Both the position numbers and the translations under genes were made by a program. A model generated the notes under the pieces. It did not search any database and was not told the origin of the DNA. It saw only the letters and a program-made list of their open reading frames with translations. From Rhodothermales bacterium (GTDB taxonomy: Bacteria; Bacteroidota; Rhodothermia; Rhodothermales; JANQRZ01), in contig JANQRZ010000004.1 of NCBI GenBank assembly GCA_028284265.1, positions 62,001 through 126,000 on the forward strand: 64,000 bases of DNA, in the 5' to 3' direction. Positions within the stretch are counted from its first letter, which is position 1; each line of letters begins with the position of its first letter. This document shows, piece after piece, positions 8,934 to 10,933 of this stretch.

Positions 8934-9746
8934 ATGACGACGCGGCGTTTCCGCAGCATCTGGATCTCCGATCTCCACCTCGGCACGCACGGCTGCCAAG
9001 CCGAGAGCGTACTCGACTTCCTCCGCCACACCGAATCCGAGCACCTCTACCTCGTCGGCGACCTCGTTGATGGGTGGGCGCTCCGGCGGAACTGGCACTG
9101 GCCGCAGGCCCACAACGATGTGGTGCAGAAGCTCCTGCGTAAGGCGCGCAAGGGCACCCACGTCGTCTACGTGCCCGGCAACCACGACGACTTCGCGCAC
9201 CACTTCACCGGCCTCATCTTCGGGGAGATCGAGATCACGCGCGAGGCGGTCCATGACACCGCCGACGGTCGCATCCTCCTCGTTCTCCACGGCGACCAGT
9301 TCGACGGAGCGGTGAAGTTCGCGCCGTGGCTCTCGCACCTCGGGGCACGGGCCTATGAAACGGCGCTCGCCCTGAACACCGTGCTCAATCGCGTGCGCCG
9401 AGCCTTCGGGATGCCCTATTGGTCGCTGGCTGGCTACCTGAAAGGGAAGACCAAGAAGGCCGTGCAGTACGTCGCCGGGTTCGAGGAAGCCGTTGCCCGC
9501 CGTGCCCGCGAGCGCGATGTGGACGGAATCATCTGCGGTCATATCCACAAGGCCGAACTCCGGCCCATCGACGGCATCCTCTACGCGAACTGCGGCGACT
9601 GGGTGGAGAACTGCACCGCCCTCGTTGAGCATGAAGACGGGCGGCTGGAGATCGTGCGCTGGCCCACGTTGCCAGCGACAGCGGCTCCGTCAGGCGACGG
9701 CCTCGCCTCGGGGTTGCCCCTTCTCAACACGGTTCGGTCGCTGTAG
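8934..9746 (+). CDS. Metallophosphoesterase, UDP-2,3-diacylglucosamine diphosphatase-like / PlcP-like phospholipase C
   Basis: 'WISDLHLGTHGCQAESVLDFLRH', 'YLVGDLVDGW', 'VPGNHDDF', 'LHGDQFD', 'ICGHIHKAE' metallophosphoesterase motifs; 'WPQAHNDVVQKLLRKARKGT' as recalled for the PlcP type. Confidence 0.85.
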   Translation: MTTRRFRSIWISDLHLGTHGCQAESVLDFLRHTESEHLYLVGDLVDGWALRRNWHWPQAHNDVVQKLLRKARKGTHVVYVPGNHDDFAHHFTGLIFGEIEITREAVHDTADGRILLVLHGDQFDGAVKFAPWLSHLGARAYETALALNTVLNRVRRAFGMPYWSLAGYLKGKTKKAVQYVAGFEEAVARRARERDVDGIICGHIHKAELRPIDGILYANCGDWVENCTALVEHEDGRLEIVRWPTLPATAAPSGDGLASGLPLLNTVRSL

Positions 9747-9781
9747 GCCCTCTCGACTCCCTGACTCTCGACCCTGAAATC

Positions 9782-10933
9782 ATGCGCGCACTCTTCGTCA
9801 TCCAAGGAGAAGGGCGGGGCCACATGACGCAAGCCCTCGCGTTGAGCGAACTGCTGGAAGCGCGCGGGCACGCCGTCTGTGCGGCCCTCATCGGACGAGG
9901 CGGAGGGCGCAAGGTGCCCGCCTTCTTTACCGAGGGCATCAACGCGCCGGTTCACTTCTTCGTCAGTCCGGGCTTTGCCTATGAGAACGGGGCTGTCCGG
10001 CTCGGGCAGACCGTCCGCGAGGGGCTGCGGAAGAGTTGGGTATATGCCCACCACTTGCAGATCCTCGACCAGCAGATCACGGCCTACCAGCCTGATGTGA
10101 TCGTCAATTTTTATGAGGGCATGGTGGGGCTGTACCAACTCGCTTTCCGGTCAGCGGTGCCGGTGGTCTGTATCGGACACCAGTATATGTTCGGGCACCC
10201 GGCCTACCGGTTTGCATCCGGGCAGCGGGTCGGGCGTGCTGCGCTGAAGGCCTACACACGGCTGACCGCGCTGGGAGCTGCTCGCCGGCTGGCCCTTTCG
10301 TTCTATCCCGCCAAAGACCTACCCGACCAGAACCTCCGCGTCATTCCGCCTCTGCTTCGCCGGACGGTGCTCGACTTGAATGGAAGCACGGACGATGGGT
10401 CGCTGCTCATCTATCTCCTGAACCGCGATCGGGCGGAGGGGCTGGAGGCGTGGCACCGTCGCCGCCCGGACGTGCCGGTTCGTTGTTTCTGGGACGGCGA
10501 GGCCCGGCATCCGTATCCCAACCTGCGATTTCACCCGCTCTGCGGCACCCATTTTCTGCAACGCATGGCGCAGGCGCGGGGCGTCGTCTGCACCGCCGGG
10601 TTCGAGTCGGTCAGCGAAGCCCTGTGGCTTGGCAAGCCCGTCTACATGATCCCAACGCCCGGCCACCTCGAACAACGCACGAACGCGCTCGACGCACAGC
10701 GCATCGGGGCGGGCCTCTGGGGAACGGACTTCGACCTCGACGGCTTTCTCCAGTATCTGGACCAGCACTCCGAGCAGGCACGGGCGAATACACGGGAGAC
10801 CTTTCAGGCGTGGGTCAAAGCAGGCGAAGCGCGCGTCGTAGAAGAGATCGAGAGTGTATCGCGTCGGCGGACGCTCATTCAGCCCGTATGGGAAACGGTC
10901 GCGTCGTCAGGGCACGCACAGGCAGCAGCGTAA
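9782..10933 (+). CDS. Glycosyltransferase family protein (MJ1255/MurG-like GT-B)
   Basis: 'MRALFVIQGEGRGHMTQALALSELLEARGH' N-terminus and 'AGFESVSEALWLGKPVYMIPTPGHLEQRTNA' C-terminal GT-B motif; 35 bp downstream of the phosphoesterase. Confidence 0.82.
   Translation: MRALFVIQGEGRGHMTQALALSELLEARGHAVCAALIGRGGGRKVPAFFTEGINAPVHFFVSPGFAYENGAVRLGQTVREGLRKSWVYAHHLQILDQQITAYQPDVIVNFYEGMVGLYQLAFRSAVPVVCIGHQYMFGHPAYRFASGQRVGRAALKAYTRLTALGAARRLALSFYPAKDLPDQNLRVIPPLLRRTVLDLNGSTDDGSLLIYLLNRDRAEGLEAWHRRRPDVPVRCFWDGEARHPYPNLRFHPLCGTHFLQRMAQARGVVCTAGFESVSEALWLGKPVYMIPTPGHLEQRTNALDAQRIGAGLWGTDFDLDGFLQYLDQHSEQARANTRETFQAWVKAGEARVVEEIESVSRRRTLIQPVWETVASSGHAQAAA

What the first reader, a model, noticed from the sequence alone, without database searches (positions are those of the whole stretch)
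8934..10933. Candidate phosphate-starvation lipid-remodelling operon (PlcP-like phospholipase C + glycosyltransferase)
The phosphoesterase would usually be annotated as an LpxH-type UDP-2,3-diacylglucosamine diphosphatase. Its 'GTHGCQAESVLDFLRH..WPQAHNDVVQKLLRKARKGT' signature resembles PlcP, the phospholipase C that releases diacylglycerol for glycolipid or betaine-lipid synthesis in Pi-starved Sinorhizobium and marine bacteria. A glycosyltransferase follows 35 bp downstream, and a Pho-like array precedes the pair. Hypothesis: PlcP converts phospholipids to DAG and the GT makes a non-phosphorus glycolipid. The GT is not the classical Agt type as far as I can tell, so the lipid product may be new.
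Basis: partly seen in the sequence, partly recalled or inferred. Interest (0 to 1): 0.82.

Follow-up and report, generated by a model that had tools for sequence, protein, structure and literature searches.

The report
Phosphate-starvation membrane lipid-swap operon (PlcP-GT)
A pair of genes labelled as lipopolysaccharide enzymes in databases is almost certainly a phosphate-starvation switch that strips phosphate off membrane lipids (PlcP) and probably replaces it with sugar, using a glycosyltransferase of a different family from the one known to partner PlcP.

Summary
In detail: two same-strand genes 35 bp apart (8934-9746, 9782-10933), preceded by an array of 11-bp direct repeats at 8832-8864. 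The phosphoesterase is PlcP, not LpxH. It is 53% and 50% identical to the P. aeruginosa and S. meliloti PlcP loci but 24% to E. coli LpxH. It has His where LpxH has its signature Arg80, and it groups with PlcPs. The genome and 59 relatives lack LpxB, and a separate LpxH-like gene exists. The GT is PF13528, a GT-B enzyme near GT1/GT28, not the GT4 Agt. The PlcP-GT pair is conserved in 25/29 Rhodothermales loci and 55/80 named GT loci across Bacteroidota and Verrucomicrobia. A repeat model trained on plcP upstreams ranks sites before the upstream TonB receptor (4172) and plcP (8832) as the window's best two. It is also found before 14/14 TonB-receptor and 15/30 pstS genes, against 0/23 controls, so it is very probably the Pho box. 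The two upstream genes are an ElpS-type phosphate-starvation pair. Inferred only: the GT makes a glycosyl-diacylglycerol, predicted beta-linked. PlcP with a Pi-induced GT in Bacteroidota is already reported (F. johnsoniae), so this is a new variant of a known kind.

The parts
4172..4215 (+). Pho-box-like array, four 11-bp units (GGTAACACTAC GGTAATACGCC GCTAACAGCGG GGTAATGTCGG) upstream of the TonB receptor
   Evidence: best-scoring site of the 64-kb window with a motif trained only on plcP upstream regions; 14/14 TBDT upstream regions score 0/300 shuffles; one of two places in the whole genome with an exact TAAY triple
4287..7166 (+). TonB-dependent receptor (TIGR01782-like), partner of the ElpS-like lipoprotein
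   Evidence: conserved upstream of plcP-GT in Rhodothermales; homologous to the receptor beside ElpS-type lipoprotein and T2SS genes in alphaproteobacteria
7239..8729 (+). ElpS-type extracellular lipoprotein (PF28492)
   Evidence: Caulobacter ElpS is made under phosphate starvation (PMC2996285)
8776..8814 (+). intrinsic terminator-like hairpin (16 pairs, T tail after it) separating the lipoprotein gene from plcP
8832..8864 (+). Pho-box-like array, three 11-bp units, upstream of plcP
   Evidence: 0/200 shuffles in leave-one-out test; 20/28 Rhodothermales plcP upstreams at <=2/200; second-best cluster of the window
8934..9746 (+). PlcP-type cytoplasmic phospholipase C (calcineurin-like metallophosphoesterase), usually misannotated as LpxH
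9782..10933 (+). PF13528 GT-B glycosyltransferase, proposed diacylglycerol glycosyltransferase
   Evidence: adjacency conserved

Best explanation
This is a Pho-regulated membrane lipid-remodelling operon. When phosphate is scarce, a PhoB-type regulator binds the 11-bp direct repeats at 8832-8864 and turns on plcP and the GT. PlcP, a two-metal phosphoesterase, cleaves the phosphorylated head groups from membrane phospholipids and leaves diacylglycerol. The PF13528 GT then transfers a sugar from a nucleotide-sugar to that diacylglycerol, giving a phosphorus-free glycolipid. Because the GT belongs with the inverting GT1/GT28 enzymes, the linkage should be beta, unlike the product of the retaining GT4 Agt. 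The same regulator turns on the neighbouring TonB receptor and ElpS-type lipoprotein. Shown computationally: PlcP membership, not LpxH, the conserved pair, the repeats and their presence at pstS promoters. Inferred: catalysis on phospholipids by this protein, the acceptor, donor and anomer of the GT, and induction by low phosphate.
For: PlcP identity: 53% to the P. aeruginosa locus with adjacent Agt-type GT (PA3219/PA3218 arrangement), 50% to the S. meliloti protein near AHL-synthase/LuxR genes, 24% to E. coli LpxH. The two PlcP anchors are 46.6% identical to each other, matching the 46% published for PA3219 versus S. meliloti PlcP (PMC8528852). All metal ligands are kept, with His at the LpxH Arg80 position in the window protein and in 29/29, 54/54 and 3/3 PlcP-type proteins. 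The tree places it inside the PlcP clade (UFBoot 92) on a long branch from LpxH. There is no LpxB in 60/60 genomes with positive controls, no LpxI (31), and a separate LpxH-like paralogue (11, 34). The pair is conserved. Pho box. Neighbours are an ElpS-type pair. In F. johnsoniae PlcP (8.6) and a PF04101 GT of the phoBR operon (5.4; table columns read here as log2 changes) are up under Pi depletion (PMC8115612). The GT is GT-B, nearest to GT1/MurG, with the N-terminal His conserved.
Against: No expression or lipid data for this organism. The GT occurs without any PlcP in some Rhodothermales, and in Cytophagales loci L098/L104/L131 it follows an LpxH-type phosphoesterase instead, so it may not depend on PlcP-derived DAG. 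No characterised member of the GT's family is known to me to act on DAG. The middle repeat unit at 8832 is degenerate. 8 of 28 plcP upstream regions lack a clear array. The genome lacks PstS and PhoX, so its Pho regulon is unusual. Foldseek sees LpxH as the nearest solved fold, as expected for the superfamily.
Confidence: 0.75

Rival explanations
1. The protein is LpxH, the UDP-2,3-diacylglucosamine diphosphatase of lipid A synthesis, and the GT works on lipopolysaccharide.
For: Weak matches to the LpxH models (43.3 and 40.7 bits); LpxH is the nearest solved fold; databases name its relatives LpxH.
Against: Scores are far below the curated cut-offs (134 and 190 bits); Arg80 is replaced by His (PMC5016852 says the Arg is found in all LpxH); outside the LpxH clade; LpxB absent in all 60 genomes while controls ring.
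Confidence: 0.03
2. PlcP acts as proposed, but the GT does not use its DAG; it glycosylates another lipid (ceramide, polyprenol, sterol-like or hopanoid) or a surface polymer as part of the same phosphate-starvation response, and the DAG goes to other non-phosphorus lipids or is recycled.
For: The GT is kept without PlcP in some genomes and sits in the TBDT-ElpS locus without PlcP in Salinibacter/Salinivenus-type genomes; in some Cytophagales it follows an LpxH-type phosphoesterase; structural neighbours include sterol and macrolide GTs.
Against: Immediate adjacency to plcP, often overlapping, in 55/80 named GT loci and 25/29 Rhodothermales plcP loci; the known plcP-agt precedent (PMC4796936, PMC8528852).
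Confidence: 0.2
3. The pair is co-inherited but constitutive: a housekeeping glycolipid pathway, and the repeats are sites for another OmpR-family regulator rather than PhoB.
For: No induction data; only 3 of 15 phoX-type upstreams carry the repeat at p<=0.01; own genome lacks PstS and PhoX.
Against: 15/30 pstS upstreams carry it against 0/23 control genes; it precedes the ElpS-type locus in 14/14 cases; the spacing equals the 8+3-bp Pho box and the core resembles the cyanobacterial CTTAACCT repeat (PMC1906773).
Confidence: 0.08

Closest known systems
PlcP-Agt lipid remodelling (Sinorhizobium, Phaeobacter, Pelagibacter, Pseudomonas aeruginosa, Methylosinus)
   Same: PlcP orthologue, GT gene immediately downstream, Pho-box control
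   Different: GT is PF13528 (GT1/GT28-like, predicted inverting) instead of the retaining GT4 Agt; Pho box is a TAAY 11-bp repeat instead of CTGTCAT; carried mainly by Bacteroidota incl. Rhodothermales, some Verrucomicrobia
Flavobacterium johnsoniae Pi-response genes Fjoh_4577 (PlcP), Fjoh_0541 (GT, PF04101, phoBR operon), Fjoh_0545/0546 (TBDT, FII lipoprotein)
   Same: PlcP, a GT, a TBDT and an ElpS-like lipoprotein all induced by Pi depletion (PMC8115612)
   Different: there PlcP is an orphan gene and the GT is in the phoBR operon; here PlcP and GT form one unit next to the TBDT-lipoprotein unit. Homology of Fjoh_0541 to this GT was not tested
Caulobacter ElpS (CC0170) and TonB receptor CC0171
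   Same: upstream TBDT and lipoprotein are homologous to the pairs beside T2SS genes in alphaproteobacteria, the arrangement described for ElpS
   Different: no T2SS here; relatives carry a T9SS C-terminal domain; the ElpS sequence itself was not on hand for a direct comparison
LpxH
   Same: calcineurin-like fold and metal ligands
   Different: His for Arg80, separate clade, no LpxB in the order

Membership tests
PlcP (phospholipase C of lipid remodelling) | Sequence clade with the characterised S. meliloti and P. aeruginosa enzymes | tested here: met
   anchors identified by locus context and by their mutual 46.6% identity (published 46%)
PlcP (phospholipase C of lipid remodelling) | Complete metal site with catalytic His (GNHD) | tested here: met
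PlcP (phospholipase C of lipid remodelling) | Adjacent lipid-synthesis or glycosyltransferase gene and Pho box | tested here: met
PlcP (phospholipase C of lipid remodelling) | Hydrolyses phospholipids to DAG; induced by low phosphate | not testable with these tools
   needs enzyme assay, expression and lipid data
LpxH | Arg80 that binds the phosphate of lipid X (found in all LpxH, PMC5016852) | tested here: not met
   His in the window protein
LpxH | Score above TIGR01854 / NF003743 cut-offs | tested here: not met
   40.7 of 190.35 and 43.3 of 134 bits
LpxH | Lipid A pathway in the genome (LpxB downstream) | tested here: not met
   0 of 60 genomes incl. own, controls positive
Agt (GT4 DAG glycosyltransferase) | GT4-type domain and similarity to characterised Agt | tested here: not met
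   window GT matches PF13528, PF04101 and weakly PF03033/PF06258, no GT4 domain; Rhodothermales downstream GTs match the window GT, none matches the P. aeruginosa Agt best
PF13528 (Glyco_trans_1_3) | Score above the Pfam cut-off | tested here: met
   111.5 of 25 bits
TIGR00661 (MJ1255/VC2487 family) | Score above the curated cut-off | tested here: not met
   89.6 of 195.9 bits
Pho box | Tandem direct repeats at 11-bp spacing upstream of phosphate genes | tested here: met
Pho box | Binding by PhoB | not testable with these tools
   candidate PhoBR-type pair at C23:353250

The most novel reading that the evidence does not exclude
Bacteroidota (including Rhodothermales) and some Verrucomicrobia use a separate, inverting PF13528 glycosyltransferase in place of the GT4 Agt to make phosphorus-free beta-glycosyl-diacylglycerols from PlcP-derived DAG. 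This would be an independently recruited second half of the lipid-remodelling pathway with a different lipid stereochemistry, driven by a TAAY-type Pho box.
Probability: 0.5. Interest if true: 0.68.

Novelty: new variant of a known kind. Interest (0 to 1): 0.55.

Why it matters
It corrects a misannotation (LpxH) in an order that appears to lack the lipid A pathway. It extends PlcP lipid remodelling as a two-gene unit to Rhodothermales, Cytophagales, Bacteroidales and some Verrucomicrobia. It names a testable alternative to Agt whose lipid product would differ in linkage, and gives a usable Pho-box model for this order. If true, lipid and phosphorus budgets inferred from plcP-agt surveys miss the lineages that use this GT.

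Tried and rejected
LpxH hypothesis: rejected. LpxI as the alternative hydrolase: absent in all 60 genomes. Chance explanation of the repeats: rejected by leave-one-out scoring, shuffles and control promoters. Phosphate-gene validation inside the own genome failed because PstS and PhoX are not found there; the third exact TAAY triple of the genome lies between ribD and a riboflavin synthase gene on the other strand and is probably chance. phoX-type promoters gave only 3/15. The first script for pstS promoters picked wrong reading frames and was redone. One paper search was malformed. Literature searches found no paper linking TIGR00661/MJ1255 to diacylglycerol and no second Bacteroidota PlcP-GT study. 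Homology of the GT to Fjoh_0541 could not be tested because that sequence was not on hand.

Full report
WHAT IS THERE. Two same-strand ORFs at 8934-9746 (270 aa) and 9782-10933 (383 aa) are separated by 35 bp. The first is a calcineurin-type phosphoesterase (PF12850/PF00149); the second matches PF13528 (111.5 bits, cut-off 25) and more weakly the MurG-type domain PF04101. Upstream lie a TonB-dependent receptor (4287-7166) and a ~500-aa lipoprotein (7239-8729), then a strong terminator-like hairpin (8776-8814). PlcP and GT therefore look like a transcription unit of their own.

PlcP, NOT LpxH. The LpxH models match far below their cut-offs (40.7/190 and 43.3/134 bits). tblastn found relatives in loci that serve as anchors. 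One is a P. aeruginosa locus with the phosphoesterase followed by an Agt-type GT, the PA3219/PA3218 arrangement of PMC8528852. The other is a S. meliloti locus near an AHL synthase and a LuxR regulator, which by my own knowledge is the SMc00171 region. The window protein is 53% and 50% identical to these and 24% to E. coli LpxH. The two anchors are 46.6% identical to each other, as published (46%). All metal ligands are present. The LpxH-specific Arg80 (PMC5016852) is His in the window protein, as in 29/29 Rhodothermales, 54/54 sequences of the wider GT-linked set and 3/3 anchor PlcP sequences. A maximum-likelihood tree puts it inside a PlcP clade (UFBoot 92) far from LpxH and the LpxH-like paralogues. 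LpxB, the next lipid A enzyme, is absent from the own genome and 59 relatives although the control genomes ring, and LpxI is absent too. A separate LpxH-like gene exists at C16:344.6k.

THE PAIR IS CONSERVED. Of 29 Rhodothermales plcP loci, 25 have the same GT directly downstream on the same strand, mostly within about 15 bp. A GT-centred scan of named genomes kept 80 loci; 55 have plcP immediately upstream, with 4-bp overlaps common. They include Dyadobacter, Emticicia, Algoriphagus, Parabacteroides and Verrucomicrobia. PlcP and GT co-occur across genomes (Fisher p=0.006; small, phylogenetically non-independent sample). Exceptions matter. Some genomes keep the GT without PlcP. In Salinibacter and relatives the GT sits behind the TonB receptor and lipoprotein without plcP. 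In three Cytophagales loci an LpxH-type phosphoesterase precedes the GT.

PHO CONTROL. Upstream of plcP in the window is GATAACACGTT GGTGTTATCCC GGTAATGCAGC (8832-8864). A motif of three NNTAAYNNNNN units learned from Rhodothermales plcP upstream regions, tested leave-one-out, gives 20 of 28 regions at <=2/200 shuffles, the window at 0/200. Applied to the 64-kb window, the two best clusters are 4172-4215 (four units, before the TonB receptor, outside the training set) and 8832. All 14 TonB-receptor upstreams tested score 0/300. As an independent check, 15 of 30 pstS upstreams carry the two-unit repeat at p<=0.01 against 0 of 23 upstreams of LpxH-like genes; phoX-type genes gave 3/15. In Dyadobacter the plcP-GT pair has CTTAACCTACT GATAACCTGCG AGTAACATCCA-type arrays. 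The 11-bp period equals the 8-bp box plus 3-bp linker of known Pho boxes, and the TTAAC/TAAY core resembles the cyanobacterial CTTAACCT (PMC1906773). I conclude it is very probably the Pho box of these bacteria. Binding is not shown. A PhoR/PhoB-like pair is at C23:353250. The genome has no detectable PstS or PhoX.

THE NEIGHBOURS. Alphaproteobacterial homologues of the lipoprotein sit beside a TonB receptor and type II secretion genes, and both window proteins are homologous to that pair. This is the arrangement of Caulobacter ElpS, a lipoprotein made under phosphate starvation (PMC2996285). In F. johnsoniae an ElpS-related lipoprotein and TonB receptor in the phoBR operon, a PF04101 GT of the same operon and an orphan PlcP are all induced by Pi depletion (PMC8115612).

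THE GT. A confident AlphaFold model (pLDDT 92.9) has a GT-B fold nearest to GT1 enzymes, with MurG (GT28) and sterol glucosyltransferase among the matches. A profile search aligns its GRGH motif with the N-terminal GH motif of YjiC and MurG and its C-terminal ESVSEA...HxEQ motif with their donor sites. His14 is invariant or nearly so. GT1 and GT28 are inverting families (established knowledge), so a beta linkage is predicted, whereas the Pelagibacter Agt homologue is a retaining GT4 enzyme (PMC8231724). That DAG is the acceptor is inferred from adjacency to plcP and the plcP-agt precedent; it is not shown.

NOVELTY. PlcP followed by glycosyltransferases is known (PMC4796936), other putative DAG GTs next to plcP are known in methanotrophs (PMC9239053), and Pi-induced PlcP plus GT is known in F. 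johnsoniae. What I did not find described is this GT family as the conserved partner of PlcP, the TAAY Pho box of Rhodothermales, and the link to the ElpS-type locus. Verdict: new variant of a known kind.

Noticed in passing
own genome G000: No PstS-type (PF12849) and no PhoX (PF05787) gene was found in the genome or its congener, although most relatives have PstS; how it takes up phosphate under limitation is unclear.
   Followed up: no
G000:C16:344510-345124 and relatives: An LpxH-like paralogue (with Arg at the Arg80 position in this genome, His in most relatives) is kept in most Rhodothermales although LpxB is absent from all 60 genomes; its substrate is unknown.
   Followed up: partly
L098, L104, L131 at 5155-7074: In Cytophagales MAGs the same GT follows an LpxH-type phosphoesterase instead of PlcP.
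   Followed up: partly
G047:C4:1442605-1444411 (L035): Two PlcP-type genes in tandem, with no GT directly adjacent.
   Followed up: no
G000:C14:52375-52411: The only other exact TAAY triple of the genome lies between ribD and a riboflavin synthase gene, on the opposite strand.
   Followed up: partly
window 8832-8851: The first part of the array is also a perfect palindrome, GATAACAC-GTTG-GTGTTATC; it is not conserved in the congener L193.
   Followed up: partly
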